Shown here in pieces: positions 1,078 to 32,935 of a DNA stretch of 34,008 bases (within the stretch, counting starts at the first letter, position 1; every line of letters starts with the position of its first letter). The notes under the pieces are model-generated. The model was not told the origin of the DNA. It made no database searches and saw nothing but the letters and a program-made list of their open reading frames with translations. Origin of the DNA: a virus; the IMG/VR virus record IMGVR_UViG_3300025133_000367, positions 1 to 34,008 of that record; one strand, written 5' to 3'. The position numbers were made by a program, and so were the translations under genes.

Positions 1078-2238
1078 ATGCAACACAAAATTAATAGAGC
1101 AAACAACACTGATTGGAACGGTAAACAACTATGGCACAATCCTGTAGATAACAGAATTTATGCCACAGACAGTGCACCAACCTACAGCTTCGATGAAGCA
1201 AATGGTTATCCAGTCTATGATTATGCACAACACTTCGATGCAGTCAAGACAGCAAAAGGAGAAAAATTAGGTACATCTTACGTACATGATGCATTCTTAG
1301 ACAGCGAATTTAAATCCGTTGCAGAAGAATATGTATCTGATGTTCAAGCAGGTGGTCGTCAAAAACTAGCAGCTTTAAGATCAAACGTAAACTCCGCAGT
1401 CGACATTGTTAACGTATGGGAAACCGTATTAGGCAAAAGAGACAGAGTTTATGCAGGTAAGAACCTAGCAAAAGAAATTGCAGTACCAAACCTTTTGATT
1501 AGTATTGATACCGTCACAAAATTCGGTGGTATGACAAAACTCGATGAAGGACAAAGATCACCTCTCAAAGAATTGCCATACACAAGAGCAAACTTCACAG
1601 CAGCAAAATACGGATTGAAGTTCATCATCCACGAAGAAGCAAGATTGAAAAACGTGCACAACGTTTTGCAAGATTCTATCCAAGTGGCTTCTAACAAGAT
1701 CGAACAAAAACAATCCTTTGATGTTATCAGTGAGCTTAACTCGAATTTGACAGCACAAGCAGCAACAGGAGTCTGGGATACATTTGTCGCAGCAACAGAC
1801 CGTTCAACCAACGACCCAACCGTAGATATAGGAATCGCTTCCTTAAACATCGAAGGTTCTGGTGTAGGTGGTAAAATGAACAGAGTCGGTATGCACCAAC
1901 TTACATACGCAAAATTCACTGGAAACACCTTCCTAAGAGGAGTTGCCAGTAACGGACCACGTGATTATTCATATGAGCCGGGAACTAGCGAACTAAGTGG
2001 CATTCCGGGAGTAGGTCTCGTTCTAGACAACAGTATTCAACAAGGTGAAGTTTATGCAGTCGACACAGAATTAGAACCAACAGCAGCCCTATTTCAGGGT
2101 CCGCAAAGAGTTGGATCACAGCACGACGAGGAGACAGGAGATGACAAATACTTTGTTATTGACTATCACCTAGCAGCTATAATTCAGTCAGAAACTGGTA
2201 GACAGATCACAGGATGCACAACACCATTAGCTTGGTAG
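1078..2238 (+). CDS. Major capsid protein, HK97 fold
   Basis: 386 residues, a usual length for HK97-fold capsid proteins. Seen: a long N-terminal region, a helix-rich central part (residues about 85-230, with a predicted spine helix around VLQDSIQVASNKIEQKQSFDV), and a C-terminal beta-rich P-domain-like end (VGLVLDNSIQQGEVYAVDTE, then an acidic loop). Position after scaffold and decoration genes and before a T-rich terminator supports the call. The ribosome site AGGTGA is close to the ATG. It forms the icosahedral shell after assembly on the scaffold. No direct motif proves the fold; the call rests on length, pattern and synteny. Confidence 0.75.
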   Translation: MQHKINRANNTDWNGKQLWHNPVDNRIYATDSAPTYSFDEANGYPVYDYAQHFDAVKTAKGEKLGTSYVHDAFLDSEFKSVAEEYVSDVQAGGRQKLAALRSNVNSAVDIVNVWETVLGKRDRVYAGKNLAKEIAVPNLLISIDTVTKFGGMTKLDEGQRSPLKELPYTRANFTAAKYGLKFIIHEEARLKNVHNVLQDSIQVASNKIEQKQSFDVISELNSNLTAQAATGVWDTFVAATDRSTNDPTVDIGIASLNIEGSGVGGKMNRVGMHQLTYAKFTGNTFLRGVASNGPRDYSYEPGTSELSGIPGVGLVLDNSIQQGEVYAVDTELEPTAALFQGPQRVGSQHDEETGDDKYFVIDYHLAAIIQSETGRQITGCTTPLAW

Positions 2239-8058: not shown

Positions 8059-8624
8059 TGGTAAGTTATATTTGGAGAGATAAGACAAATCCACCTGATT
8101 CTAGTAATAATTCAAGTTTTAAAGCAACAGATTATATTTCATTTGAATTATCAGTAGGAACAGATGATAATGCACATATACACCAAACTGATTTTAAATT
8201 TTCAACAGCATTGGCAGATAATGAAAAACCAAACGCAAAATTAAACGAACTACAAGACACACAGTTAGACTCTATAACAATAACAATAACAGGTTCAATA
8301 GAAAACCAACAGGCTGATGGGGGTGCAAATGCAGTAATACAAAAAGCAAAACAATGGATGTGTGACAAAAAAACAAAGATAGTTGCAAGTCCTAGTAGTA
8401 CAACACCTACATTACCAAAAGGTAGATTTGGATTAAAACTTTCTGATTTCTCTTCATTTAATGTTTATCCTAAAGCAACTCTGGGCTTTATGATACAAGA
8501 TTGGACATGGGTAAGAGATGGAGATACACCCGGTAAAACATCATTTATTGCTACTTTGAGGCTTAATGGTGACATTGGTGCTGAAAATTCAACATACGCA
8601 TGGAACACAGAGGTTACATCTTAG
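8058..8624 (+). CDS. Tail protein (distal-tail-like), 188 aa
   Basis: 188 residues, beta-rich with Thr/Ser/Asp. Features: FELSVGTDDNAHIHQTDFKF, SITITITGSI, then a KGRFGLKLSDFSSFNVYP segment and FMIQDWTWVRDGDTPGKTSF. Small beta proteins between tape measure and hub are usually distal tail or baseplate adaptor proteins. Its start codon shares a base with the upstream stop (TAATG) and its stop abuts the next ATG, so it is translated within the tail operon. Assignment is by synteny. Confidence 0.5.
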   Translation: MVSYIWRDKTNPPDSSNNSSFKATDYISFELSVGTDDNAHIHQTDFKFSTALADNEKPNAKLNELQDTQLDSITITITGSIENQQADGGANAVIQKAKQWMCDKKTKIVASPSSTTPTLPKGRFGLKLSDFSSFNVYPKATLGFMIQDWTWVRDGDTPGKTSFIATLRLNGDIGAENSTYAWNTEVTS

Positions 8625-21192: not shown

Positions 21193-21696
21193 ATGCCTAA
21201 AAAACTAGGGAAAACTAGGGCAAAAGGTGGTAGACCCACAAAAGCTAAACAGGTTGAAATTAGAAAAAAGTGTGAGGAAGAATATATGAAATACCATTCA
21301 GCAGCATATGCAGCAAGAGTCTTAGACCTTAACTCTAACACAGTAGAGAAATACTTTAGAGAGTTCCAAGAAGCAGAGTTAGAGGAGACAAATAGGGATT
21401 TTGTAATCAAACAACATTCAGTAAAGAACAAAGTAGTAGCACGATTAGATGATATATTAGAAAAACTGGATAAACAGTATAGAGATATTGATAATGAATT
21501 AACAGAAAAAAAGCAAGATGAACTTGATAAAGGTAGGTATGAAGCCATGAAGACCACAGTATTAAAATCAATATCAGATATCCTGCAGCAGAAAGCAAGT
21601 ATAGAGACCACACCAACATTAGATATAACTATAGATAAATACATAGAGGAGACATATGGACAGCATATTAGCGAAAAAGTGGCAAAACCTCAATAG
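21193..21696 (+). CDS. terS: Terminase small subunit
   Basis: 167 residues. A very basic N-terminus (KKLGKTRAKGGRPTKAKQ), an HTH-like stretch (SAAYAARVLDLNSNTVEKYF at about 36-55), a long helical/coiled-coil segment (KNKVVARLDDILEKLDKQYR and onward), and a short C-terminus. This HTH-plus-oligomerisation layout and the directly overlapping ATPase gene identify the DNA-recognition subunit of the packaging motor. It overlaps the ATPase gene by 41 bases. Confidence 0.7.
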   Translation: MPKKLGKTRAKGGRPTKAKQVEIRKKCEEEYMKYHSAAYAARVLDLNSNTVEKYFREFQEAELEETNRDFVIKQHSVKNKVVARLDDILEKLDKQYRDIDNELTEKKQDELDKGRYEAMKTTVLKSISDILQQKASIETTPTLDITIDKYIEETYGQHISEKVAKPQ

Positions 21697-22561
21697 AACT
21701 GGTATACAGAAAGCCCAATCTGTAGAACTAGAGATGGAGACAAAGACCTTCAATGTACCTGAAGACTTTGAAAAGTTCAATGAGATGATAGGTGCACCCA
21801 TACATCCGGGAACAGGAGAACGTACACCCATATTTGATTATCAGGATGATTACTTTAAAGCATGGCAGAAGCATCATAAACTCATACTAAACAAGTCTAG
21901 GAAGATAGGTGCAACAGAGACAGCACTCCGTATTATAGCATATAATTGCATAATAGGTAGGTATTCAGGTCATCGTGTGATGATTGTAGCAGGTAACAAA
22001 CAAGAAGTAGCCAATAGATTTATACAAAGGTTCAAGTCATTGTTCATGAAAGGCTTTACAGACCTAGATGGTAAAACATATGAATATGATGATATTATTA
22101 CAAAAGAGGATAGTAAATCATGTATGGTTAATAATACATTTGTACAGGCATATCCAGCCAATGAGTCAGTGAGAGGTGAGGAGAATGTAAAATGTGTATT
22201 TATGTCAGAGTGTGCATTTATAAACCTGATTGACGATACTAAAGTATACAATGCCCTTCACCCTAATGTTGCAAACATATCGGATGCAGATTTCGTCATG
22301 GAGTCTACGCCTAATGGAAAGAGGGGTTTCTTTTGGACCAACTTTGATGCGGGTTCTGAATACCATAAATTAGAGCAACCATATACGGTATCATTAGGTA
22401 AACTATTAGATAAGAAATTCATAGAGACCGAAAAGGATAACCCAAGAATTGACTTTGAACAGGAATATTGCTGCAAGTTTACAACATCATTATCTGGTGC
22501 ATTCAAAGAGGATGAGATAATATTTGAAGAGAAAGATATAAATTATTATAACGATATATAA
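21656..22561 (+). CDS. terL: Terminase large subunit, ATPase half (split gene)
   Basis: 301 residues, behind GAGGAG 4 bases before its ATG. The ATPase signatures are: Walker A-like LNKSRKIGATET at 78-89 (A replaces the usual K after G), adenine-side AYQDD-type segment at 61-65 (DYQDD), Walker B-like CVFMSECAF at 180-188 where E185 is kept but the preceding Asp is Ser, and coupling motif MESTPNGKRG at 215-224. The protein stops at the linker, right where the RNase H-like nuclease should begin; the nuclease half lies 5.2 kb downstream at 27760. No intein motifs are at the edge. It should power DNA translocation into the head as a separate chain. Confidence 0.85.
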   Translation: MDSILAKKWQNLNRTGIQKAQSVELEMETKTFNVPEDFEKFNEMIGAPIHPGTGERTPIFDYQDDYFKAWQKHHKLILNKSRKIGATETALRIIAYNCIIGRYSGHRVMIVAGNKQEVANRFIQRFKSLFMKGFTDLDGKTYEYDDIITKEDSKSCMVNNTFVQAYPANESVRGEENVKCVFMSECAFINLIDDTKVYNALHPNVANISDADFVMESTPNGKRGFFWTNFDAGSEYHKLEQPYTVSLGKLLDKKFIETEKDNPRIDFEQEYCCKFTTSLSGAFKEDEIIFEEKDINYYNDI

Positions 22562-22565
22562 GGAT

Positions 22566-22778
22566 ATGGATGAGATACAAGACCTCATTAACGAGACAAA
22601 ACGTAATGAACAATATTGGGAGAGAGTCGTTGAGGAATTAGGTGTACATAAAAATGTATTAGAAAAAAGAGGTGAACCTGTTTATGACCGACTAAAAGAC
22701 CTATTAGACATGGGTGTACAGCAATATCACATTTATAACGCTTTAATAACAGAACTGAACATAATAAAACATGGTTGA
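22566..22778 (+). CDS. Small acidic helical protein, 70 aa
   Basis: Four bases after the terminase ATPase stop, with AAGGA before its ATG. Two charged helices (EIQDLINETKRNEQYWERVVE and PVYDRLKDLLDMG). It overlaps the next gene by 8 bases. First gene of the island between the terminase halves; family not recognised. Confidence 0.5.
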   Translation: MDEIQDLINETKRNEQYWERVVEELGVHKNVLEKRGEPVYDRLKDLLDMGVQQYHIYNALITELNIIKHG

Positions 22779-22947
22779 TGTTGAATTAGACGAGTCTGAC
22801 TACAAAACTATATTGGCATGGTATGAATTAGCTTTTGCAGGTAAAGACGTAAAGGCACATAAAACAAAAGACCTAGACACATTAAACAAAATTGGTGTTA
22901 TGTGTAAGGCATATCTAAAGGAATTAAAAGACGAGGCAGAGTCATGA
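22771..22947 (+). CDS. Small hypothetical protein, 58 aa
   Basis: The frame from ATG 22771 encodes 58 residues: an acidic N-terminus, helix YKTILAWYELAFAGKDVKAH, and helix LDTLNKIGVMCKAYLKELKD. Overlaps both neighbours (8 and 4 bases), which supports real coupled translation. Confidence 0.5.
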   Translation: MVDVELDESDYKTILAWYELAFAGKDVKAHKTKDLDTLNKIGVMCKAYLKELKDEAES

Positions 22948-23063
22948 TAGGAGATATAGGGTTTACATTGATATGTATGGCATATTTTTTTGGTGGTATA
23001 ACGATAGGTTATTATGTGGCAACGTGGAAGAATAGAAAGAGAGGAGACGGAAGATGGGATTAA
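22944..23063 (+). CDS. Single-pass membrane microprotein, 39 aa
   Basis: The frame from ATG 22944 (ATGA overlap) encodes 39 residues with one hydrophobic segment (IGFTLICMAYFFGGITIGYY) and a basic C-terminus (KNRKRGDGR), expected to stay in the cytoplasm. It could be a small holin-like or membrane-anchoring protein. Confidence 0.5.
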   Translation: MIGDIGFTLICMAYFFGGITIGYYVATWKNRKRGDGRWD

Positions 23064-23296
23064 GAGATTTATTAAAGAAGGAAAGATTTGTATTACCACC
23101 TGAAGATATACAACGTGCATTTGTATTAGAGATAGAAGAGAGATTATTGACAGCAACCGGGTCAGAGAAGACCAAACTAACATATATGTTGGCTAATCAA
23201 TTAATGTTCCTTAATCAAATAAGAGATAAGAAGAAGCCAGTTAAACCAATAAAGATGAATAATAGAGGTAAATGGGTGTGGGTAGAAGATGAGTGA
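23054..23296 (+). CDS. Small hypothetical protein, 80 aa
   Basis: Shine-Dalgarno GAGGAG lies about 7 bases before ATG 23054. Helical N-terminus (IQRAFVLEIEERLLTATG), helix KLTYMLANQLMFLNQIRDKK, then a short basic tail ending WVWVEDE. Overlaps both neighbours. Not recognised. Confidence 0.55.
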   Translation: MGLRDLLKKERFVLPPEDIQRAFVLEIEERLLTATGSEKTKLTYMLANQLMFLNQIRDKKKPVKPIKMNNRGKWVWVEDE

Positions 23297-23378
23297 TTGT
23301 CAACATCCTAACTTTTTCTTTAAAGAATTTAAATTCTACTGCAGAACATGTGGTGAAGAAGTTACCGATGAACCTTGA
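23289..23378 (+). CDS. Zinc-knuckle microprotein, 29 aa
   Basis: The frame from ATG 23289 encodes 29 residues with C4/H6 and C18/C21 (YCRTCGEE) as likely zinc ligands. Overlaps the previous gene by 8 bases. Confidence 0.4.
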   Translation: MSDCQHPNFFFKEFKFYCRTCGEEVTDEP

Positions 23379-23485
23379 ATGACGTATATAATATAAGACA
23401 TTGTATATGGTGTGGGCAAAGAGGATTCAAGGATGCAGAAGAAGTTATTAAACATATCAAGTCAAAACATACAACACAAGGGTAA
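23375..23485 (+). CDS. C2H2 zinc-finger microprotein, TTG start, 36 aa
   Basis: From TTG 23375, overlapping the previous stop as TTGA, the frame encodes CIWCGQRGFKDAEEVIKHIK followed by SKH: Cys pair CxxC at 10-13 and His pair at 27/32, a classic C2H2 finger. The start is uncertain because no ATG is available in frame, but the finger itself is clear. Confidence 0.5.
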   Translation: MNDVYNIRHCIWCGQRGFKDAEEVIKHIKSKHTTQG

Positions 23486-23487
23486 CA

Positions 23488-23497
23488 ATTAAATATA
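23488..23497 (+). promoter_or_regulatory. TATA box (ATTAAATATA) for the 23518 gene
   Basis: 21-30 bases before ATG 23518. Confidence 0.5.
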
Positions 23498-23517
23498 CAA
23501 ACAACATAACTACTTCT

Positions 23518-23868
23518 ATGGCAAATTCAAAATCATATTATGGTGGGCATGAATGGCAAATAACAGAGTTAGGTCTAGTACCTGCACCACCTAAAAGCGG
23601 TCGTTCTAATACAGTTTTACCAGTTGGTGGTCAATGTAATAATTTATGTGTTAATTTTAAATCAAGAATAAGAAACAATCTAGGAGAGAACCCATATGAT
23701 AAACACGCATATTGTAAGAGATGTAGTAAATATATATTTAAAGAGTTATTACATGAAAACAAAAATGGTGCAAAGATATTATGCCCATGCTGTCATGCAT
23801 ATGCTAGAATGACCCCATCCACATCTGCTAAGAACAGAACTCTAAAACGCAGGGCTTCTAAGGAATGA
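23518..23868 (+). CDS. Basic zinc-binding protein, 116 aa
   Basis: Own promoter. Residues 40-44 CNNLC, 66-69 CKRC and 89-92 CPCC give enough Cys for one or two zinc sites; the segment PYDKHAYCKRCSKYI followed by CPCCHAYARMTP looks like a nucleic-acid-binding zinc domain. C-terminus basic (KNRTLKRRASKE). Possibly a transcription or DNA-binding factor. Family not recognised. Confidence 0.55.
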   Translation: MANSKSYYGGHEWQITELGLVPAPPKSGRSNTVLPVGGQCNNLCVNFKSRIRNNLGENPYDKHAYCKRCSKYIFKELLHENKNGAKILCPCCHAYARMTPSTSAKNRTLKRRASKE

Positions 23869-23951
23869 AGTGTTGTGAACATGAATGGAGAGAAGTAGTA
23901 TTGCGATGCTTAATATGTGGTAAACAATTAAAGAAGAATAATGGTAATTGA
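23865..23951 (+). CDS. Cys-rich microprotein, 28 aa
   Basis: The frame from ATG 23865 (ATGA overlap) encodes 28 residues: CCEHEW near the N-terminus and CLIC at 15-18, a likely small zinc ribbon. It overlaps the DUF4338 gene by 11 bases. Confidence 0.4.
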   Translation: MKCCEHEWREVVLRCLICGKQLKKNNGN

Positions 23952-24609
23952 GTTAGAATATATATTAGGATATAAAGAAGAGTCAGATAATACAAAACGT
24001 ATGTTGTTCAGACAAATTATTAACGAACATCATAAATACAAAAAATACAGTGATTATGTTGGTAGAACATTAAACTATTTTGTAAAGAAAAATGATGATA
24101 TAATTGGATGTGTTGGTGTTGGGTCTGGTGTATTAGCATTAAAACATAGAGATGATTATATAGGTTGGGACAAGAAACAACGATTAAAGAACTTAAGGCA
24201 TATAGCAAATAACTATAGGTTCTGCATGATAGAACAAGGATATGGTAGTCAAGTTCTTAGTTTATTAGCAAAAGAAGCAAAGAAACATTGGATGCGTAAG
24301 TTTGGGGATAGACTTGTTTTATTAGAAACTATGGTTCAACCACCATTCACAGGTGTGGTTTATAAATCTGCAGGGTGGGATATGTTAGGAATGACCAAAG
24401 GATTATCATTTAAATCAAGACCGTCAAAATCATTATTATTAAAAGGGTCTAAAAAAAGAGCAGCGTTAGTTGCAAAGAATAATTATGAAAAAGGTAATTA
24501 TAAATATTGTGGTGATAAACAATATCAAGATACAAAGAAGGTAACACCAAAATATATATTTGTTAAACCCATTTATAAAAACTGGAAGGATATACTGAAT
24601 AGAGATTGA
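23941..24609 (+). CDS. DUF4338 protein, related to Druantia DruA
   Basis: 222 residues. Landmarks of the DUF4338 family in order: YVGRTLNYFVKKNDDIIGCVGVGSG (39-63), LKHRDDYIGWD (67-77), LRHIANNYRFCMIEQGYGSQ (85-104), and LLETMVQPPFTGVVYKSAGW (128-147) followed by MLGMTKG. The same blocks characterise DruA, an essential part of type I Druantia anti-phage systems, and related proteins of mobile elements. No other Druantia gene (DruE helicase etc.) is nearby. In a virus it may serve in exclusion of other viruses, interfere with host defence, or process DNA; all of this is inference. The family call is firm. Confidence 0.8.
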   Translation: MVIELEYILGYKEESDNTKRMLFRQIINEHHKYKKYSDYVGRTLNYFVKKNDDIIGCVGVGSGVLALKHRDDYIGWDKKQRLKNLRHIANNYRFCMIEQGYGSQVLSLLAKEAKKHWMRKFGDRLVLLETMVQPPFTGVVYKSAGWDMLGMTKGLSFKSRPSKSLLLKGSKKRAALVAKNNYEKGNYKYCGDKQYQDTKKVTPKYIFVKPIYKNWKDILNRD

Positions 24610-24980
24610 TTTATATGACAAATAACACTAGTAAAGGTAGGGAAGAGTATATATTGAACAATAGCGTAATACTACCAATGGATACAGAATCAATAACATG
24701 GGAAGAACTATTTACAGAGATAGAAGCCAATGACGAACACTGTCAAGAGGTCGCTTCTAACTTAGCTAAACTTTCTCCTAGACCAGATTGGTTTAGATGC
24801 TCACATCATACAAATGTCAAGTATTGGGGTGCAGCAGGTGCATGTCCATTATGTTTTCTAAAAACAATCTTGGAAGAAAAACAAAGAATAGAGCATGAGA
24901 TTAGAACACCAGAATATCAAGAGTTTCTTAAAGACTTAGAGAGAGCATTTAACAATAGGAGACCTAATGAAAAAGTGTAA
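24606..24980 (+). CDS. Zinc-binding protein, 124 aa
   Basis: Starts either at TTG 24606 (TTGA overlap with the DUF4338 stop) or at ATG 24615. Mid-region WFRCSHHTNVKYWGAAGACPLCF has C/H ligands (C, H, H and CxxC) for one zinc; a charged C-terminal helix follows (KTILEEKQRIEHEIRTPEYQ). Not recognised as a family. Confidence 0.55.
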   Translation: MIYMTNNTSKGREEYILNNSVILPMDTESITWEELFTEIEANDEHCQEVASNLAKLSPRPDWFRCSHHTNVKYWGAAGACPLCFLKTILEEKQRIEHEIRTPEYQEFLKDLERAFNNRRPNEKV

Positions 24981-25062
24981 ACAATGCGGTATTTATAGAG
25001 ACTTTGCATTATTTTATGATGATAGATTTAATATGTGCAGAAGATGTTATGAGGCGATATAA
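24967..25062 (+). CDS. Zinc-ribbon microprotein, 31 aa
   Basis: Behind AGGAG 6 bases upstream, the frame from ATG 24967 encodes 31 residues with CKQC (4-7) and CRRC (25-28), a minimal zinc ribbon. Confidence 0.5.
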   Translation: MKKCKQCGIYRDFALFYDDRFNMCRRCYEAI

Positions 25063-25178
25063 TGAAAGCTGATGATTATGATGAGACCAGAGGGGTACAC
25101 GCAGGTTGGTGCAGAGGATGCAAACAAGAAAAATGGGATTTATCTAATGATGATGGATATTGTGGAGATTGTAACTAA
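25062..25178 (+). CDS. Zinc-ribbon microprotein, 38 aa
   Basis: TAATG overlap with the previous stop. 38 residues with CRGC (17-20) and CGDC (34-37). Same design as its neighbour. Confidence 0.5.
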   Translation: MKADDYDETRGVHAGWCRGCKQEKWDLSNDDGYCGDCN

Positions 25179-25255
25179 TGGATGAACGAGACTGGGAAAC
25201 GATAGGTTATTATACACAAAGAACGTATGTAAAGAGGAAAGATTGGTATGACTAA
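25178..25255 (+). CDS. Hypothetical microprotein, 25 aa
   Basis: TAATG overlap with the previous gene and an 8-base overlap with the next. 25 residues, aromatic and charged (WETIGYYTQRTYVKRKDWYD). It may be a leader that couples translation of the next gene. Confidence 0.3.
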   Translation: MDERDWETIGYYTQRTYVKRKDWYD

Positions 25256-25397
25256 AAATTGTAAAGACTGTGGAACAAAACTTGTTTTAATAGAAACAGG
25301 TGCACATACATTATGGACATGTCTACAGTGTGCTGTTGAGTTTAATGATATTCAAAAATTAACAAAAGACTGGAAAGATAAATTAGGTGCATGGTAA
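25248..25397 (+). CDS. Zinc-ribbon microprotein, 49 aa
   Basis: 49 residues from ATG 25248: CKDC (5-8), then CLQC (27-30) in WTCLQCAVEF, an ordinary zinc ribbon, with a charged helix after it. It follows the SD-like sequence AGAGGAAAG. Overlaps the nuclease gene by TAATG. Confidence 0.5.
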   Translation: MTKNCKDCGTKLVLIETGAHTLWTCLQCAVEFNDIQKLTKDWKDKLGAW

Positions 25398-26059
25398 TGT
25401 TTATACATAAACCACTTACAGTGACCTTACCTAATCTAAAAAGGAAGAATGAGAATCACAAACGTGTATACTATGATGATGATGGTAATAGATATGAGAG
25501 TGTAACTAATGTAGTAGGCATTGTAGACAGAAAGGGATTACAAGAATGGAGAGATGCAGTTGGTGAAGATGTAGCAAACTATGTATCACGTAAGGCTATG
25601 AACACAGGAACCAAAATGCATAACATGGTCGAGAACTATTTATATAATAAAAAGAATACTGAAAAGAACATATTTGCCAAAGCCCACTTTGAGAACATTA
25701 AACCACTATTAAAGCCACTAACTAACGTTCAGGGCTTAGAGGTTAGATTATGCAGTAAAGATTTAGGCTTAGCAGGAACAGCAGATTGTGTTGCAACATA
25801 TGATGGGGTTCAATCAATTATCGACTTTAAATCATCTAGTAAGCAAAAGAAAGAGGAGTGGATACAAAAGTATTTCCTTCAAACTACTGCATATTCACTC
25901 ATGTGGGAAGAGTTAACAGGTCAGAAAATAGAGCAACTTGTTGTATTAATTACAGGAGAAGACGGTTCTAGAGACACATTTATACGAAATAGAAAAGATT
26001 ATATACAAGAATTACATAATGCTATTGAGGCATTCCAGATGGAAAAAGACAATGGCTAA
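25397..26059 (+). CDS. RecB/Cas4-type PD-(D/E)xK nuclease
   Basis: 220 residues from ATG 25397 (an in-frame ATG two codons upstream is also possible). RecB-type motifs: GTKMHNMVE (71-79), E115, GTAD with D130, strand SIIDFKSSSK with D143-x-K145, and QTTAY (162-166), the QxxxY motif. This set defines the RecB/Cas4/lambda-exonuclease-like group. It could degrade DNA ends for recombination with RadA or destroy foreign or host DNA. It lies in the island between the terminase halves, with no helicase or SSB gene adjacent. Confidence 0.75.
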   Translation: MFIHKPLTVTLPNLKRKNENHKRVYYDDDGNRYESVTNVVGIVDRKGLQEWRDAVGEDVANYVSRKAMNTGTKMHNMVENYLYNKKNTEKNIFAKAHFENIKPLLKPLTNVQGLEVRLCSKDLGLAGTADCVATYDGVQSIIDFKSSSKQKKEEWIQKYFLQTTAYSLMWEELTGQKIEQLVVLITGEDGSRDTFIRNRKDYIQELHNAIEAFQMEKDNG

Positions 26060-26219
26060 CACAAGTAGAGACTTTGAAATGGAACAGATGTTCGGTAAAG
26101 ATGCTAAAGAAGTCATTGTACCTAACATACACGAACAATGTGAAATGTGCGGAGATGTAAAAAATATTAATAACCATGATTTATGTCCATTTTGTCAATT
26201 AGATATAGATTTAAACTAA
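26052..26219 (+). CDS. Zinc-ribbon protein, 55 aa
   Basis: Overlaps the end of the nuclease gene by 8 bases. 55 residues, an acidic N-terminus, then CEMC (34-37) and CPFC (49-52), one zinc ribbon. Expected to be co-translated with the nuclease. Confidence 0.5.
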   Translation: MANTSRDFEMEQMFGKDAKEVIVPNIHEQCEMCGDVKNINNHDLCPFCQLDIDLN

Positions 26220-26221
26220 AC

Positions 26222-26228
26222 ATATTTA
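26222..26228 (+). promoter_or_regulatory. TATA box (ATATTTA) for the 26254 gene
   Basis: 26-32 bases before ATG 26254, followed by a GAGTA-A-TACTC palindrome at 26239-26249. Confidence 0.4.
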
Positions 26229-26253
26229 TGTAGTGATGGAGTAATACTCAAGT

Positions 26254-26433
26254 ATGCCTCAATACAAAGATTTTATAATTATGCATCCAAGAAAAGGAAA
26301 AATCAAACTAAGCCAATTATCACATAATGAGATGTGCAGATATTGTTTTAATCTTATAATAGAATGTTCAAGACTAAGGGAAGAATTAAAATTAGATGAG
26401 GAGAAACCAGATGAGTCTAAAGAAACAGAGTAA
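26254..26433 (+). CDS. Small protein with Cys pair, 59 aa
   Basis: The frame from ATG 26254 encodes 59 residues: FIIMHPRKGKIKLSQLSHNE, then MCRYC (a CxxC), helix NLIIECSRLREELKL, and an acidic end. It overlaps the next gene by 23 bases. Function unknown. Confidence 0.45.
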   Translation: MPQYKDFIIMHPRKGKIKLSQLSHNEMCRYCFNLIIECSRLREELKLDEEKPDESKETE

Positions 26434-26533
26434 CCCTATTTGTGTTAGATGTGGAACTGAAATGACCCCCATCCAAGCATGTCATGAGAGATGCGATAAT
26501 TGTGGAGCAGAGTTGACCTGTAGTGATGAATAG
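26411..26533 (+). CDS. Zinc-ribbon microprotein, 40 aa
   Basis: Shine-Dalgarno GAGGAG lies about 7 bases before ATG 26411. 40 residues with CVRC (11-14) and C..CDNC (23-30), followed by C37. A zinc ribbon. Confidence 0.5.
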   Translation: MSLKKQSNPICVRCGTEMTPIQACHERCDNCGAELTCSDE

Positions 26534-26535
26534 AT

Positions 26536-26799
26536 ATGTGGAACAAATTTTGGGATTGGTATGAAAGACATACTACCGAATCATTAGGTGTTACAGCTCT
26601 AATCCTTTATATGCAAATCCCTCATATGATATGGGCTGGAGATGCTATATTACAGACAGGTCTTGTTTGGGGTGCAAATCCAGTATTAGACTTCTTTTTA
26701 TATGGAATAGACCTAGTTGAGATATTACCCATGATAAATATAGGTCTAATCATTTATAGTCGAGTACGTCATAATAATAATAATGAACCTAAGGGTTGA
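26536..26799 (+). CDS. Two-pass membrane protein, 87 aa
   Basis: Starts two bases after the previous stop. An N-terminal amphipathic WNKFWDWYERH, membrane segment LGVTALILYMQIPHMIWAGD, a short loop, and a second segment FFLYGIDLVEILPMINIGLI, then a basic Asn-rich tail. It may be host-derived. It could be a holin-like or receptor-masking protein; nothing decides this. Confidence 0.55.
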   Translation: MWNKFWDWYERHTTESLGVTALILYMQIPHMIWAGDAILQTGLVWGANPVLDFFLYGIDLVEILPMINIGLIIYSRVRHNNNNEPKG

Positions 26800-27025
26800 A
26801 CTAAGGGCTAGGCAGTCAGATAATAGGGGTATATATTATGCTGAAACTAAGAGAGCAGTAATATACCTAGCCATGCATGAAACTCTAGAAGATGTATTTA
26901 AGACCATAAACCATGAGACATTCCACCATTGTTTCTCTGAAGCAGGGGAAGCAGATGATATGGATGAGGACCAAGAAGAACGGTTAATATTTTGTCTACA
27001 ATGGGCAGATATTTCAATCGCTTAA
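26783..27025 (+). CDS. Minimal HExxH zincin, 80 aa
   Basis: 80 residues. Strand RAVIYLAMHETLED, then helix TINHETFHHCFSEAG with HETFH at 44-48, and an acidic helix DEDQEERLIFCLQW that can provide a Glu ligand, as in minigluzincins. Very small for a peptidase, and with no visible substrate cleft. It overlaps the membrane protein by 17 bases. It may be an active mini-protease or a zinc-binding regulator. Confidence 0.55.
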   Translation: MNLRVELRARQSDNRGIYYAETKRAVIYLAMHETLEDVFKTINHETFHHCFSEAGEADDMDEDQEERLIFCLQWADISIA

Positions 27026-27030
27026 ATATT
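27021..27030 (+). promoter_or_regulatory. TATA-like box (CTTAAATATT) for the 27050 gene
   Basis: 20-29 bases before ATG 27050; shares the CTTAAATA core with the 2415 and 2674 promoters. Confidence 0.5.
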
Positions 27031-27049
27031 ATAGCAAAGTATATAAAGC

Positions 27050-27763
27050 ATGTCTAGAGTAGACGAACTAAAGCAAAGACTTGCAGCCATAAAAGATTTT
27101 GGTGAAAATAATACTAATAAACATTTTACAGCACCTATTAACAAAAAAAATGAATTAGGTAAAAAATTAAGACGTAAACGTATAGAAGAAACACAACCAC
27201 ACATAGGTGGGGGTCCGGCTTATGAAAGAAAAGACAAAGTTATAGGTAGAAGACCACCATATATGTCTCATCATAATACTTTACCATTTGAAAGAACAAA
27301 ACCGGGAACTATGGAAGAAGTAGATGAAATTAAACATGAATTAGAGAAGTTTCCTAGACCAAAGGTACGAGAAAAAGATAGAAAACCCGGAACTTTATTT
27401 GATAATGAAGAGGGGTTACAAGATAGAGAGTTTGCTGCAGATTCATTTGATGACCCATCCATGAAAGACCCAGATAAATGGAGTGGTGAAGATTTAAAAA
27501 AATTAGAAGAAGAATTAACACCACCATCATTGAGTAATTACACACATAATCAACCATTACGAGATAGAATACATCAATTAAATCCCGGTAGTGTAACAAT
27601 GATTGAACCAAAAAGAGATGTTTCTATGAAAAAATCAGAAGAAGAGTGGAAATATATTGAAGACCCAAATTATAAAATTAAACCTATTAAACCTACTAGA
27701 ATGGAATGGAGAGCTATAATATCTGCTAAACTAAAGCAAAGACTATCGAGGTTACAACAATGA
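27050..27763 (+). CDS. Hydrophilic disordered protein, 237 aa
   Basis: Charged, Pro/Lys/Glu-rich throughout, with little predicted secondary structure except the ends. The N-terminus VDELKQRLAAIKDF and C-terminus AIISAKLKQRLSRLQQ carry an LK-x-RL helix like that of the genes at 2415 and 2674. Three Pro-Gly turns separate low-complexity blocks. It is coupled to the terminase nuclease by ATGA overlap and may bridge it to another partner or act in assembly. Family not recognised. Confidence 0.55.
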   Translation: MSRVDELKQRLAAIKDFGENNTNKHFTAPINKKNELGKKLRRKRIEETQPHIGGGPAYERKDKVIGRRPPYMSHHNTLPFERTKPGTMEEVDEIKHELEKFPRPKVREKDRKPGTLFDNEEGLQDREFAADSFDDPSMKDPDKWSGEDLKKLEEELTPPSLSNYTHNQPLRDRIHQLNPGSVTMIEPKRDVSMKKSEEEWKYIEDPNYKIKPIKPTRMEWRAIISAKLKQRLSRLQQ

Positions 27764-28344
27764 AAATGCCAAAGTTCGGTGGATTAGATTTAGCACAAAG
27801 GGTAGATAATTCTGCACTGGTTGTATTAAAGTTAGAGGATAATAAACTATCTCAAGTGGGTCAAAAAACATGGGCACATATTGACTATGAGAAGGTATTT
27901 AATGATGTAACTAAGATTAATGAAGTAGAGGAAGGCATGTATAAAATATGCTATGATAGAACAGGGGTTGGAGATGCAGTAGCCAAATTAATTAACCCAG
28001 AGATACGAAACATATTTAGACCAGTAGTATTATCAGCCCCTAAGAAATTCGAGTTAATATCATTAATGAAGGGTATGTTCAATAAGAAGAAGTTAATTAT
28101 ACACGATAGGGATTTATTCAGGGAGATAACAGAGCAGGAGATAGTTAAATCAGATGCAGGTAATATTCTATACAGACACCCACAGGGTTTTCACGATGAT
28201 AGATTCTGGGCATTAGCCTTAGCATGTGATGCAGCATCTAATTATTTGAGAGGATATAGTAGACCTAGAGTAGCAGCAGCCACACCTAGAACCACAGACC
28301 TAGAAAGCCTTGTTACAAAAGAAATCAATAAAATGATGCAATAA
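27760..28344 (+). CDS. terL: Terminase large subunit, nuclease half (split gene)
   Basis: 194 residues of the RNase H-like terminase nuclease: KFGGLDLAQRVDNSALVVL with D10 on the first strand, the second acid D66 in CYDRTGVGDAV, and HDDRFWALALACDA with D146/D147. This triad cuts concatemeric DNA during packaging. The start is right at the strand that begins the nuclease domain in intact terminases. A GAGGT ribosome site and ATGA overlap show it is translated as its own protein. The ATPase half is at 21656-22561. The C-terminus (RPRVAAATPRTTDL) is Ala/Arg-rich and could bind the portal. Confidence 0.85.
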   Translation: MKMPKFGGLDLAQRVDNSALVVLKLEDNKLSQVGQKTWAHIDYEKVFNDVTKINEVEEGMYKICYDRTGVGDAVAKLINPEIRNIFRPVVLSAPKKFELISLMKGMFNKKKLIIHDRDLFREITEQEIVKSDAGNILYRHPQGFHDDRFWALALACDAASNYLRGYSRPRVAAATPRTTDLESLVTKEINKMMQ

Positions 28345-28347
28345 TAA

Positions 28348-28357
28348 CTTTAATAAG
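28348..28357 (+). promoter_or_regulatory. TATA-like box for the portal gene
   Basis: CTTTAATAAG, 23-32 bases before ATG 28380. Confidence 0.35.
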
Positions 28358-28379
28358 AGGGAAAGGGTAACTAATAAAT

Positions 28380-30041
28380 ATGGCAGATGATGTTAAAGCA
28401 GCACCTAGAGTAGCAGCATCTAATGGCGAAGCAGCACGTAGTTTTGACCGTTCTCTATTTAGACGTATGAATGGGCAAGAAGGTAATTTTCAAGGCTTAC
28501 AAGTTTGGCATCCAGTAGACCCATATTCTGGTCAACAAAGAAAAGAGTTTAGAAGTGCCATGACAAACCCATATGTTTACAGGGCATCACGTATCCAATG
28601 CACATATACAGCAGGACAGGGGTATACAACTGAAATCGTACCAAGACATGAGGAAGACGTACCAGAAGAACAATTAAACGAATGGCAAAGATCAACAACA
28701 TACCATATACCATACTTTGATAAAGATATGACTGCAGAACAATTATTAGATAAAGTAGACAAACTAGCATTAGATTTAGATTTACCAACAAATTTATTTA
28801 ATGGGTATTTTACAGCACTGGAGCAAGGTCGATGTGTATTAGCATTGACACCTCTAGACCCAGATGAGCAAGGTAATTGGCAACTACCAGAACAGATTAG
28901 ATTAATTAGGTCCGAGTTTACAGAGAGACCAGTATTAGATGATAACACAGGTGAGTTAGTTGGAGTTAGAATCATAGGGGTTAGAAGTCAAATAAGAGAT
29001 AACATCATACCAGCAGAACGTATGCTTTATCTTATGCATGGATTTAACAACGAATTATTTTCAGATTATTATGGAGACTCTAAAATAGCTAGAGTATCAG
29101 ATGAGGCTAACACATTAAACATTGTATTGAATCAAGACTTTGAGAGAGCTGCAGAATCAGCATGGTATAAACCACCAGTCTTTAGTGTACCAATACCACC
29201 ACAGGAAGCAGGTAATGAGGATGACGTACTAGCATCATTCATTAATAAGATTAACGATTCTAAAGGTCAAGCTATCGCAGTAACAGGACCAAGTAACCCA
29301 GAAGAGACGGGGGTAAATGTTCTAACTACACCAGTAAATGCAGACATAGGCGGATTAGAAATTGTTAGAATGGGATTAATTAAAGCAATTATCACAGCAT
29401 TCGGTCTACCCGGATTCATGCTTAGTGAGGGGGATGTAGGAAAATTAGGTGGTAATGCAAACATTGAAGAGGTTGATGCATATCTAAACCAAGAGATTAG
29501 ACCAGAGAGAATTATACTAGAAGACTCTATTGAGAAACAATTCTATGATAGAATACTTTGTATATTATTCAGAGAACCAGATGCACGTAAACTACCATGT
29601 AAGATTAAATTCAAATTCAATAAACCTAAACTACTCACATTAGTAACACCTGATATGTTCCAAGTTTTAACAGGCATGGCACAAATGGGATTGATTGATT
29701 CATCAGGTATTAAAGATATACTAGGATTAGAAGATATGGATAAAGATACAGTATCTAAAGGTTCACAAGGGGGAGCAGACCCAATGAATAATAAACTAAC
29801 AGGATGGAGACAACCTGTACAAATCAACCTATGGGAAGATGCTACAGGTAAGATGAACATGACTGCTGCAGACTGGGTTAATACAGACCAATGGAATAAG
29901 GTAGATATTAGGAATAAAGAGAGTGAGGTAGATAGAGAGATTCAGAATCATGAGTGGGAAATAGCAGAGAAAAAGTCAGAATGGTCAAACGGTAATACTC
30001 GTAAAGCATCTAAAAAGAATAAAAGGAAGAAAAAACAATAA
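28380..30041 (+). CDS. Portal protein
   Basis: 553 residues, typical portal length. Seen: RKEFRSAMTNPYVYRASRIQ at about 54-73 (portal clip-and-wing entry motif), IIPAERMLYLMHG (211-223), a 'FSDYYGDSKIARVSDEANTL' stem-type helix, a long helical core, then LIKAIITAFGLPGFML, where 'P..il' precedes the crown. The C-terminus is very basic (RKASKKNKRKKKQ). Twelve copies form the channel through which the terminase pumps DNA. Next to the terminase nuclease half; adaptor genes are 9 kb away. Confidence 0.8.
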   Translation: MADDVKAAPRVAASNGEAARSFDRSLFRRMNGQEGNFQGLQVWHPVDPYSGQQRKEFRSAMTNPYVYRASRIQCTYTAGQGYTTEIVPRHEEDVPEEQLNEWQRSTTYHIPYFDKDMTAEQLLDKVDKLALDLDLPTNLFNGYFTALEQGRCVLALTPLDPDEQGNWQLPEQIRLIRSEFTERPVLDDNTGELVGVRIIGVRSQIRDNIIPAERMLYLMHGFNNELFSDYYGDSKIARVSDEANTLNIVLNQDFERAAESAWYKPPVFSVPIPPQEAGNEDDVLASFINKINDSKGQAIAVTGPSNPEETGVNVLTTPVNADIGGLEIVRMGLIKAIITAFGLPGFMLSEGDVGKLGGNANIEEVDAYLNQEIRPERIILEDSIEKQFYDRILCILFREPDARKLPCKIKFKFNKPKLLTLVTPDMFQVLTGMAQMGLIDSSGIKDILGLEDMDKDTVSKGSQGGADPMNNKLTGWRQPVQINLWEDATGKMNMTAADWVNTDQWNKVDIRNKESEVDREIQNHEWEIAEKKSEWSNGNTRKASKKNKRKKKQ

Positions 30042-30047
30042 TGAACT

Positions 30048-30263
30048 ATGGATACAAAAAAAGCAATAGCGAGGGTTTTAGGCAACTCTGGAACATACTT
30101 CGTTACACCTTATGTTGGTTCGGCGATAGCAGGGATACCATCACTGGAGATAGCATTATATACGGCAATTATCGGATTAGTATTATCGACCTCAAGGGAA
30201 CTGATTGAATATGGTAAAGGTCTCAAAACTGTTTATTGTAATGGATGTGGAAGACCTTTATGA
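30048..30263 (+). CDS. Small membrane protein with Cys tail, 71 aa
   Basis: One or two hydrophobic segments (FVTPYVGSAIAGIPSLEIAL and YTAIIGLVLSTSREL), then a short polar stretch and CNGC at 66-69. A holin-like or membrane-anchored zinc protein is possible. ATGA overlap with the next gene. Confidence 0.5.
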   Translation: MDTKKAIARVLGNSGTYFVTPYVGSAIAGIPSLEIALYTAIIGLVLSTSRELIEYGKGLKTVYCNGCGRPL

Positions 30264-30349
30264 GTGACGAGACCTGTGAGAATAAATGTTGGTGGGCAAA
30301 GCTAGGCGACTGTCTAGATCATATATTAATCTTTTGCCCTAAAAAATAG
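30260..30349 (+). CDS. Cys-rich microprotein, 29 aa
   Basis: The frame from ATG 30260 encodes 29 residues with four Cys (C6, C10, C18, C26) and aromatic residues (CWWAKLGDCLDHILIFCPKK). Coupled to the previous gene by ATGA. Confidence 0.4.
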   Translation: MSDETCENKCWWAKLGDCLDHILIFCPKK

Positions 30350-30368
30350 GATGTAAAGTAGAGTAATA

Positions 30369-30384
30369 CTTATATTATAATTTA
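30369..30384 (+). promoter_or_regulatory. TATA region for the structured RNA at 30398
   Basis: CTTATATTATAATTTA, followed 15-25 bases later by the start of the folded region; the motif AGTAATACT overlaps its upstream edge (30362-30370). Confidence 0.45.
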
Positions 30385-30397
30385 ACGTATACATATT

Positions 30398-30506
30398 GTC
30401 TTAACAACTTGGAGTGTTTGCATACACTCAACCCACTAAAGGCTAGAGTCCTCTGGTATCTCGAATGGATACATTGGAAGGCTAGAGTTAGTGGGTATTA
30501 TTTTTA
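30398..30506 (+). ncRNA. Candidate structured viral RNA, about 109 nt
   Basis: A first hairpin pairs GAGTGT (30412-30417) with ACACTC (30424-30429). Then a perfect 9-bp stem pairs ACCCACTAA (30431-30439) with TTAGTGGGT (30488-30496). Inside, CTCT (30451-30454) pairs with AGAG (30484-30487) and GTATC with GATAC (30456-30460/30468-30472) around a 7-base loop. GGCTAGAG occurs twice, on both sides of the inner stem, so the fold may switch. A T-run follows at 30500-30505. No protein frame of useful size covers it. Not a tRNA. Function unknown. Confidence 0.5.
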
Positions 30507-30521
30507 ATTAAAAAAGTTCAT

Positions 30522-30743
30522 ATGGTGTTACCACGTAAGGGTTATGTGTCTCAACTATTATTCAAACAAAAACAAAGTATGTATTGGTTGAGAGTTGCAA
30601 ACAAATATTTAGAGAACCAGTATGAAATTAAAGATTCATGGGGTGAGGGTCAAATCCATAAGAAAGCCAGTTATGATGAAGAGTTCCTAGCAGAGTTTGA
30701 CTTTATACATCAAGAAATAAAACAAACACTAATAAAGGAGTAA
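30522..30743 (+). CDS. Small hypothetical protein, 73 aa
   Basis: Basic N-terminal half (VSQLLFKQKQSMYWLRVANK) and acidic C-terminal helix (DEEFLAEFDFIHQEIKQTLI). Just after the structured RNA; start in a TAT-rich leader. Not recognised. Confidence 0.5.
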   Translation: MVLPRKGYVSQLLFKQKQSMYWLRVANKYLENQYEIKDSWGEGQIHKKASYDEEFLAEFDFIHQEIKQTLIKE

Positions 30744-30757
30744 TACTATACATCTGT

Positions 30758-30886
30758 ATGAATGCAGCACTTAACGATGCAGAAAGAAAAGCAAAAGTAA
30801 CAAGAAAACACATTACTATCTTTTCAGCTCCAAAAAGGGGTATCTATGAAAAGAGAGTAGAAGACTGTGATACTTGTCACGACTAA
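30758..30886 (+). CDS. Small basic protein, 42 aa
   Basis: The frame from ATG 30758 encodes 42 residues: helix NAALNDAERKAKVTRKHI, then a strand-turn part and CDTCH near the end, a half zinc knuckle. The AGTAATACT motif is 11 bases before the ATG. Confidence 0.4.
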   Translation: MNAALNDAERKAKVTRKHITIFSAPKRGIYEKRVEDCDTCHD

Positions 30887-30888
30887 CC

Positions 30889-30904
30889 TTCTTTTTTTAT
30901 TTTT
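30889..30904 (+). terminator. T-tract terminator
   Basis: Follows the stop at 30886; preceded by CTAACCTT exactly as after the capsid gene. Confidence 0.55.
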
Positions 30905-30914
30905 AAATTTAATA

Positions 30915-31037
30915 CCTATAGGTTGATTAGACCTATAGATACTAAGTAATTCGTTGAATCGTTTATATCTCCAACGCCCAAGAACGTGTGTCTCTGACTC
31001 ACAAAACAATTAGGAAGTATTACAATTTAACAGTTTT
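30915..31037 (+). other. Structured intergenic region between convergent genes
   Basis: Three successive inverted repeats: CTATAGGT/ACCTATAG (30916-30938, perfect 8 bp), CGTTG/CAACG (30952-30976), and GTGtGTC/GACtCAC (30986-31002). A TATA-like AT stretch lies at 30898-30912 and a T-run at 31032-31037. It may be a third small RNA on the + strand, a bidirectional terminator, or an operator. Confidence 0.35.
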
Positions 31038-31869
31038 TTGTTGAAGCTGTTGGTAATTGTCTACATTCTATAAATCTTTCTTTAAGATAGTCTACTCCTA
31101 TAAACTTTGGTGCTAGACCATGTTGACCACCAAACCCATCCTTTGCATATATTTCTACTGCCATCTGTAAATCAATAGGTTCTATTACTATATCACCGCT
31201 TGTATCAAATGGGTCAAATGAAGGATACATGAGAGAATGAACATTATTATTTTTTGACTTGTCTTCTACATAATGACCTAATCCTATAGCATGACCAAAC
31301 TCATGTAACATTATCATTTTGATAGCTGGGTATGGCATATAAACAGGACTCATATCTATTTCAACTTGATATGGAACATTACCTAATCTGTGTTTATCAT
31401 TATCACATCCTATACATAATGAAATATTAGGTTTTTCTATATGTTTAAAATATGTGGTTATAAATACATATTGATGGGTGGAATTAGAAAAGTCATAACT
31501 TGTTGTACCAAGTGCATCATTACCTGAATATTCCTCAAATTCCATAAATATTTGACATTGTGGAAAATCATCAGCGTGTTTATCATTATGATATTCATAA
31601 TCATAAAATCTCACATTCATGGTCCAATCACCCCCAGAATAATCAATAAGACTGTTCTGCCATTCTTTTACTGTATAATATGCATCATACAATACACCCC
31701 CATAAAATCTCTCATGTAAAGATGGTTCAGGTTCTGCTATACAAACAGTAGGGTTATCTTTATGCCATATATTATTACCTATTGTTTTAAATGTATCTTC
31801 ACCATAAGCCTGTGGAGTAATCATTAATAATACAAAAATCATAATAACACCTGTTTTATAGAAACGCAT
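31027..31869 (-). CDS. Secreted metzincin metalloprotease
   Basis: 280 residues, the only - strand gene. A signal peptide is clear: basic MRFYKTG, hydrophobic VIMIFVLLMI, cleavage site near AYG-ED at 21-24. Catalytic zinc motif HEFGHAIGLGH at 189-199 and Met-turn HSLMYPSF with M214 define a matrixin-like metzincin. Cys pairs (C105, C152/C155) may form disulfides outside the cell. It is divergent from a holin-like gene; their start codons touch (31867-31872). Likely cleaves S-layer or other surface protein, for lysis or host-surface change. Opposite strand and secretion suggest acquisition from a cellular genome. Confidence 0.85.
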   Translation of the reverse strand: MRFYKTGVIMIFVLLMITPQAYGEDTFKTIGNNIWHKDNPTVCIAEPEPSLHERFYGGVLYDAYYTVKEWQNSLIDYSGGDWTMNVRFYDYEYHNDKHADDFPQCQIFMEFEEYSGNDALGTTSYDFSNSTHQYVFITTYFKHIEKPNISLCIGCDNDKHRLGNVPYQVEIDMSPVYMPYPAIKMIMLHEFGHAIGLGHYVEDKSKNNNVHSLMYPSFDPFDTSGDIVIEPIDLQMAVEIYAKDGFGGQHGLAPKFIGVDYLKERFIECRQLPTASTKNC

Positions 31870-31899
31870 ATGTTTTCTATGTATTCATGGTTAAAAAGG

Positions 31900-31910
31900 T
31901 TTAAATTAAA
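31900..31910 (+). promoter_or_regulatory. TATA-like box for the holin-like gene, in a divergent promoter region
   Basis: TTTAAATTAAA, 20-30 bases before ATG 31930. The - strand protease promoter must lie in the same 60-bp interval (a TTTTTAACC sequence on the - strand at about 31889-31897). Confidence 0.45.
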
Positions 31911-31929
31911 GGAAAAGGTAGTAATACCA

Positions 31930-32193
31930 ATGGCAGATATACCAATTCTGATACTAGCAGGAAGCCTATTCGGTGCAGCCTTAAATATCATCAGAGGAGT
32001 CTCTGGGGATACAAGTGGCGAACTGGATTACAAAAAACTACTAGGCGGTGGAGTAACCGCAATAGTTGCAGCATTAGGTGCTATAGTAGCATTAGATGCA
32101 GCTGCAATTAGTGAACCAGTCACTCAAGTAGTAGTCGGTGTTCTAGTTGGTTTCGGTGCTGATTTCACTATCAGTAAATTGAAAAAAGACTAA
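31930..32193 (+). CDS. Holin-like membrane protein
   Basis: 87 residues from ATG 31930. Two to three membrane segments: IPILILAGSLFGAALNIIRG, LLGGGVTAIVAALGAIVALD and VTQVVVGVLVGFGADFTISK, with a basic C-terminus KLKKD. Small, Gly/Ala-rich, two or three segments and charged tail fit holins. An upstream in-frame ATG at 31870 would add 20 residues but would overlap the divergent promoter. Next to two metzincins, it could open the membrane so that a protease reaches the S-layer. Confidence 0.6.
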   Translation: MADIPILILAGSLFGAALNIIRGVSGDTSGELDYKKLLGGGVTAIVAALGAIVALDAAAISEPVTQVVVGVLVGFGADFTISKLKKD

Positions 32194-32242: not shown

Positions 32243-32935
32243 ATGGCGTTATGTACAGTTAGAGAAACACCAAACGAAGTTTTAGAGTTCTCCGAAGACC
32301 AAGAGGAATGGGGTCATAAATGGGATGGTAATAAAGTATTCTATTCATTAGAGTATAATGATGAATGCCCATTAATATCTAAAAATAAAATGAGAAAAGC
32401 AATTAACCTAGCCATGTCTACATGGAATTTCGAAATACCTATTAAGATTAAATCATTGTACAGAAACTATAATAATGCAGATATAAAGATTATGTTCAGA
32501 AAGAAAGACGATGACGATATATTTAGAGAAAGACATGGGGTCTTGGCATATGCATATTTTCCAAAAACCTCAAAACAGGGGGAGATAGTATTTAACCTAG
32601 ATAAGATATGGTCTGTAGATGGTAAAGGAGTAAAAGCATCAGAAGCCATAAGATTAGGAATTATAGAGAATGCTAGTAACCCAGATAGTACAATTAGAAC
32701 ATATAATATTATACATACTCTAATACATGAGATAGGTCATTCTCTTGGATTACGTCATGATGCAGATGATAACACTACAGATGTAATGGATCCATATTAT
32801 GATGGTAAGGTATTAGATTTATCATCGAGGGATTTATATCGTATTAGACTCAAATATGGTACTAGAGTGTGGAGAAGCTGGTCAATGTACGATAGAATCA
32901 AGAAATGGTTATATAACAAAAAAAGGAATATTTAA
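32243..32935 (+). CDS. Matrixin-like metzincin metalloprotease, no signal peptide
   Basis: 230 residues. Zinc motif HEIGHSLGLRHD at 162-173, Met-turn TDVMDPYY with M182, and the helix LSSRDLYRIRLKYG (193-206) that matches the 'Ls-Di-x-i-q-x-lYG' end of matrixin catalytic domains. An N-terminal beta-rich part includes WGHKWDGNKVFYSLEYND, the usual first strand. No signal peptide or membrane segment, so it acts in the cytoplasm, is released at lysis, or rides in the virion. The distance to fibre genes (0.2 kb) favours a virion or entry role. Basic C-terminus. Confidence 0.8.
   Translation: MALCTVRETPNEVLEFSEDQEEWGHKWDGNKVFYSLEYNDECPLISKNKMRKAINLAMSTWNFEIPIKIKSLYRNYNNADIKIMFRKKDDDDIFRERHGVLAYAYFPKTSKQGEIVFNLDKIWSVDGKGVKASEAIRLGIIENASNPDSTIRTYNIIHTLIHEIGHSLGLRHDADDNTTDVMDPYYDGKVLDLSSRDLYRIRLKYGTRVWRSWSMYDRIKKWLYNKKRNI

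What the first reader, a model, noticed from the sequence alone, without database searches (positions are those of the whole stretch)
21656..28344. Large terminase split into separate ATPase and nuclease genes 5.2 kb apart
Seen: the ATPase gene (21656-22561) ends at the inter-domain linker, and the complete nuclease triad D10, D66, D146/D147 is on a different gene (27760-28344) with its own GAGGT site and ATGA overlap. Between lie about 17 accessory genes. Known: terminase large subunits are normally one chain. Inference: the motor works as a trans-assembled ATPase plus nuclease, and the gap became a cargo insertion site.
Basis: partly seen in the sequence, partly recalled or inferred. Interest (0 to 1): 0.75.

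Follow-up and report, generated by a model that had tools for sequence, protein, structure and literature searches.

The report
Split DNA-packaging motor of archaeal viruses
In a family of viruses that probably infect marine ammonia-oxidising archaea, the DNA-packaging enzyme that is normally one protein is encoded as two separate proteins, a motor and a DNA cutter, often kilobases apart; this offers a natural test of whether the two parts must be joined to work.

Summary
The ORF at 21656-22561 is a T4-type terminase ATPase domain that ends at the inter-domain linker. The ORF at 27760-28344 is a complete TerL RNase-H-like nuclease with its catalytic aspartates. Neither has a second copy in the record. 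All 16 virus records that carry both halves (window included) are split, down to about 36% identity. TerS-like gene plus ATPase, and nuclease plus portal, stay paired in nearly all, while the gap runs from 0.9 to 8 kb and is far larger in one record. Host-chromosome relatives show the intermediate: ATPase and nuclease as adjacent genes, one pair with an ATGA overlap. Split nucleases form one group in a tree (81/83); the halves diverge in step (r = 0.87); both are under purifying selection. Assembly error is excluded; no intron or intein was detected. Most likely two proteins assemble without a covalent link (0.8). The 'cargo site' idea holds only in part: gap genes turn over, but several lie outside the gap in relatives. 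The nearest precedent, mirusviruses and alloherpesviruses, splits the gene but rejoins it by RNA trans-splicing. Split-adjacent TerLs also occur in Acidobacteria and Treponema, apparently independently. A new variant of a known kind.

The parts
21193..21696 (+). HTH protein, probable small terminase subunit (TerS); overlaps the ATPase start by 41 nt
   Evidence: Position, weak HTH matches. Homologues sit directly before the ATPase in L022, L017, L055, L061 and in host orphans L063, L135, L136. TerS identity is inferred.
21656..22561 (+). Terminase large subunit, ATPase half (301 aa); stop codon at the inter-domain linker
   Evidence: PF03237 1.5e-6, phrog_2 4.1e-17; T4 gp17 by profile and fold; invariant K80, G85, T87, E185, TPNG; dN/dS about 0.05
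22566..27049 (+). Intervening accessory genes (13 plus-strand ORFs before the gene at 27050), including a DruA/DUF4338-like protein (23941-24609), a PD-(D/E)XK exonuclease (25391-26059), zinc-ribbon-like small proteins and an M78-like protein (26783-27025)
   Evidence: ORFs; families; variable among relatives
27050..27763 (+). Hypervariable protein with constant ends (MSRVDELKQRLA ... KLKQRLSRLQQ); ATGA overlap with the nuclease
   Evidence: no family match
27760..28344 (+). Terminase large subunit, nuclease half (194 aa), RNase-H-like, complete acidic triad
   Evidence: PF17289 1.7e-9; G20c/P74-26 nuclease by profile and fold; invariant D66/D146/D147; dN/dS about 0.11-0.14 against L022 and L017
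28380..30041 (+). Probable portal protein, directly after the nuclease gene in nearly all linked relatives
   Evidence: 7 of 10 family members match PF04860 Phage_portal (best 1.9e-4); family profile matches the L134 protein (3e-10), itself PF04860 5e-7
1078..2238 (+). Major capsid protein (same virion module; context only)
   Evidence: phrog_1650 major head protein 1.5e-8

Best explanation
In this lineage of tailed viruses, probably of marine Nitrososphaeria, the large terminase underwent an ancient fission at the linker between ATPase and nuclease. The two genes were at first adjacent and translationally coupled. Later they became separable modules, TerS-ATPase and nuclease-portal, and accessory genes moved in and out between them. 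Shown: homology of both halves, conserved separate reading frames, independent starts, purifying selection, co-divergence, no intact TerL in the records. Inferred: the order of events, and that the two chains meet at the portal as a non-covalent motor, with the ATPase ring translocating DNA and the nuclease cutting at the start and end of packaging.
For: Domain and fold identity of both halves. Split in all 16 virus records with both halves, window included: 15 linked, plus G018. Adjacent split genes in host genomes: L129 (ATGA overlap) and L130 (TAA then ATG). Nuclease tree: 20 split rows on one side of a branch, 81/83. ATPase-nuclease distance correlation r = 0.87, Mantel p 1e-4, 15 taxa. 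dN/dS about 0.05 (ATPase) and 0.07-0.14 (nuclease) for closely related pairs. Starts within a few residues of the first nuclease strand in nearly all viral relatives. No Rfam intron or other RNA family; no intein domain in either half.
Against: No biochemical or transcript evidence that the two chains interact. Published work says that the linker promotes oligomerisation in phi29 gp16 (PMC7672431), so losing it should cost something. The ATPase model has modest confidence (pLDDT 64). The nuclease could act elsewhere. All virus records are metagenomic.
Confidence: 0.8

Rival explanations
1. The halves are rejoined before or after translation (RNA trans-splicing as in mirusviruses and alloherpesviruses, an undetected intron, or protein ligation), so the working enzyme is one chain.
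For: Mirusvirus terminase ATPase and nuclease exons lie up to about 30 kb apart and are joined by trans-splicing (PMC12768974). The halves here are exactly complementary.
Against: Nuclease genes have their own start codons, some with GAGG-type sites and gene overlaps. No conserved in-frame extension upstream of the start in most relatives. No Rfam intron and no intein. Gap size and content differ in every lineage. Host loci with directly adjacent genes have nothing to splice out. Spliceosomal mRNA splicing is not known in archaea (general knowledge).
Confidence: 0.06
2. The ATPase alone is the packaging motor, as in phi29-type systems, and the free nuclease has another job, such as processing replication intermediates.
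For: TerS-ATPase pairs without a detectable nuclease occur in host chromosomes (L063, L135, L136). TerL nucleases share the RuvC-like fold (one search lists RuvC).
Against: The nuclease is paired with the portal gene, not with replication genes, in nearly every linked virus, keeps the TerL triad, co-diverges with the ATPase, and is closest to TerL nucleases rather than resolvases.
Confidence: 0.12
3. Assembly artefact, frameshift, or decayed provirus.
For: The window comes from an assembled metagenomic contig. One relative (G018) has two stops in its nuclease frame, and some host loci are decayed (L131, L133).
Against: Independent contigs reproduce both the layout and the sequence. Both halves are under purifying selection. 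The same break recurs across about 36-42% identity.
Confidence: 0.01

Closest known systems
Tailed-virus TerL, T4 gp17 type (Terminase_6N/6C)
   Same: Both domains, motifs, fold, and TerS/portal gene neighbours
   Different: Known members are one chain; here two genes 0.9-8 kb or more apart
Mirusvirus and alloherpesvirus terminases (PMC12768974)
   Same: ATPase and nuclease parts encoded at distant places in the genome
   Different: Theirs are exons joined by trans-splicing (shown for mirusviruses by metatranscriptomes), with sites near Walker B in the reported alignment; here separate genes with their own starts, broken at the linker, in probable archaeal viruses
Orthoherpesvirus UL15/UL89-type spliced terminase (general knowledge)
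   Same: Other genes lie between the two coding parts
   Different: Joined by cis-splicing
phi29 gp16 packaging ATPase (PMC7672431)
   Same: Motor without its own catalytic nuclease
   Different: gp16 keeps a vestigial nuclease domain in the same chain; here an active-looking nuclease is a separate gene
NitKor-E1 element of 'Ca. Np. koreensis' (PMC6563490)
   Same: TerS + TerL in a thaumarchaeal integrated element without other virion genes, like L063/L135
   Different: Whether its TerL is ATPase-only was not tested here

Membership tests
TerL (Terminase_6) large terminase | ATPase domain with Walker A/B and TPNG motif III | tested here: met
   Walker A is the form NKSRKxGxT, lacking the lysine of the T4 motif GKT; Walker B keeps the glutamate (E185).
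TerL (Terminase_6) large terminase | RNase-H-like nuclease domain with acidic triad | tested here: met
TerL (Terminase_6) large terminase | Both domains on one polypeptide | tested here: not met
   Separate ORFs with stop and start codons in all virus records holding both halves
TerL (Terminase_6) large terminase | Packages and cuts DNA at the portal | not testable with these tools
   Only gene neighbourhood available
Trans-spliced terminase (mirusvirus/alloherpesvirus type) | Two exons joined in RNA | tested here: inconclusive
   No transcripts at hand. Own start codons and gene overlaps argue against it.
TerL interrupted by self-splicing intron or intein | Group I/II intron RNA or intein domain at the break | tested here: not met
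   Rfam: no match in the window and six relatives; Pfam: no intein in either half

The most novel reading that the evidence does not exclude
The packaging motor is modular by design: a TerS-ATPase unit and a portal-docked nuclease unit that are exchangeable. Host-chromosome TerS-ATPase orphans would then be satellites that hijack packaging by plugging their own motor half into a helper virus's nuclease and portal.
Probability: 0.12. Interest if true: 0.85.

Novelty: new variant of a known kind. Interest (0 to 1): 0.62.

Why it matters
Models of viral DNA packaging rely on movements between the ATPase and nuclease domains of one TerL chain. A natural, long-lived split indicates that the covalent link can be dispensed with, and gives a way to assign motor and cutting functions to separate proteins. 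It also warns that TerL-based surveys may miss or truncate archaeal virus terminases. The series fused, split-adjacent, split-distant documents how a hallmark gene came apart.

Tried and rejected
Intron, intein and assembly explanations. 'Insertion split an intact gene' as the first step: rejected as less likely because adjacent split genes exist. The gap as a unique cargo site: weakened by relocation of gap genes. AF2 of the two chains as a complex could not be run. Phage collection searches gave only distant hits, to fused or full-length terminases where checked. Literature searches found no report of a TerL encoded as two proteins; the library holds open-licence papers only. Bacterial hits of the ATPase profile first looked like decayed genes, but five of seven are followed by a nuclease-like ORF with the conserved acidic positions.

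Full report
What was claimed.

The halves. The first ORF matches Terminase_6N and PHROG TerL families. Its eight-member profile matches T4 gp17, and its AF2 model, of modest confidence (pLDDT 64), finds the T4 gp17 ATPase domain first. The second ORF matches Terminase_6C; its profile and its model (pLDDT 83) find TerL nucleases: G20c and P74-26 by profile, these and T4 and others by fold. The nuclease aspartates are conserved. The Walker A stretch is NKSRKIGATE: it lacks the lysine of T4's GKT but keeps K80, R82, K83, G85 and T87 in all eight relatives; E185 and TPNG are also invariant. Neither half has a second copy in the record. No second TerL is detectable, but the record is linear and may be incomplete.

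Not an artefact. Contig L013 matches 23281-31000 at 99.88%. L002 and L003 hold both halves with nearly identical proteins but different gap contents. Synonymous change far exceeds non-synonymous change: window against L022, dS 0.94 and dN 0.04 for the ATPase, dS 1.07 and dN 0.15 for the nuclease.

Conserved split. Scans of IMG/VR with each half gave 14 further records with both halves linked, plus the 52-kb record G018, where they lie 33 kb apart in the record. All are split. In nearly all, the TerS-like gene runs into the ATPase gene and the nuclease is followed directly by the portal gene; in L009 and L036 small ORFs lie between nuclease and portal. Gap (ATPase stop to nuclease start): L061 0.9 kb, L062 1.6, L017 2.1, L060 3.4, L009 3.6, L022 4.5, window 5.2, L055 6.0, L036 8.0 kb. 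The ancestral order TerS-TerL-portal is still visible around the gap; an intact relative, L012 (480 aa), has TerS, TerL and portal in that order (assignments by position and motif).

Host and origin. A 63% identical ATPase lies in a Marine Group I thaumarchaeote genome and another relative in a Nitrosopumilus MAG; the window has RadA and a primase-MCM protein, so a marine Nitrososphaeria host is likely but not proven. A survey of 400 genomes of that order gave adjacent split genes: L129, with an ATGA overlap, and L130, with TAA followed by ATG. L132 has a 1.4-kb gap, L134 has the halves on opposite strands 14 kb apart, and fused genes (L143-L148) occur further out. In the ATPase trees the viral sequences sit in a clade of 20 split or ATPase-only rows (90/94; 85/94 for a clade of 20 with somewhat different membership in the larger tree). 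In the nuclease tree all 20 split rows lie on one side of a branch (81/83). Support is moderate, so a single origin is likely but not certain; L134 falls with fused rows in the ATPase tree. ATPase and nuclease distances correlate (r 0.87, Mantel p 1e-4).

A second split. Bacterial hits of the ATPase profile in Acidobacteria and Treponema also end after the ATPase domain. L065, L066, L068 and L070 (Acidobacteria) and L067 (Treponema) are followed by a nuclease-like ORF with the conserved acidic positions, read by eye; L069 is truncated and L071 shows none. They branch near fused sequences away from the archaeal clade, which suggests an independent fission. These are MAG sequences and the reading frames need checking.

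The gap. It holds 14 plus-strand ORFs, including a DruA/DUF4338-like protein and an exonuclease. Gap genes are less often shared by G001, G002 and G005 than other genes (4 of 12 against 27 of 37, p 0.02; I scored this table by hand, leaving out minus-strand ORFs judged spurious). L002 lacks exactly the DruA-like gene. But 22566, 25391 and 26254 are upstream of TerS-ATPase in G001. The region is fluid rather than a single insertion point.

Mechanism. Most likely two chains meet at the portal. Published work holds that TerL nuclease domains help connect the motor to the portal (PMC7672431), which fits the nuclease-portal gene pairing. This step is inference. RNA rejoining is the alternative with a real precedent because mirusviruses do it (PMC12768974), but own starts, gene overlaps and the adjacent host forms argue against it.

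Known or new. I found no report of TerL as two proteins in the open-licence library. PHROGs holds short TerL families (phrog_7579, phrog_5713), so TerL pieces have been clustered before. I therefore rate this a new variant of a known kind.

Noticed in passing
window 27050-27763; L017:8814-10004; L023:1312-1989; L016; L055:16295-16948: Gene before the nuclease has constant ends with LKQRL motifs and a wholly variable middle; L017 has an internal LKQRL copy and its second half is 80% identical to the whole gene of L023. A 16-nt exact repeat (AACTAAAGCAAAGACT) marks both ends in the window, suggesting cassette exchange.
   Followed up: partly
G001 7765-12177 (L153), G002 27697-32043 (L157), G005 27364-31698 (L160): Proteins of about 1,450 aa just upstream of the capsid genes carry several LKxRLAxI motifs; possibly a virion-internal polyprotein cut by the head protease.
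   Followed up: no
L063:9462-10813, L135:5699-7031, L136:7763-9359: TerS-like gene plus ATPase without nuclease, among apparent host genes in thaumarchaeal genomes; no nuclease match of this family in those genomes at the threshold used, though G204 (L136) has a separate 522-aa Terminase_6C-containing ORF elsewhere. Possible packaging-hijacking satellites or relics.
   Followed up: partly
L129 and L141: Terminase ATPase genes lie near what look like the same host genes (SRPBCC-like and ctaA/cytochrome-oxidase-like), beside an integrase in L141, suggesting a shared integration site.
   Followed up: partly
L065-L071: Split-adjacent TerL in Acidobacteria and Treponema MAGs, apparently independent of the archaeal split.
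   Followed up: partly
G018 about 50468-50989 (L059:1082-1597): Nuclease frame holds two consecutive stops (TAA TGA) between AKR and the conserved aspartate; sequencing error, inactivation or a late start.
   Followed up: no
window 31027-31869 (-) and 32243-32935 (+): Two matrixin-like metalloproteases near the portal, conserved in relatives.
   Followed up: no
window 3634-5103: HATPase-like (GyrB/HSP90-type) protein absent from all six larger relatives examined.
   Followed up: no
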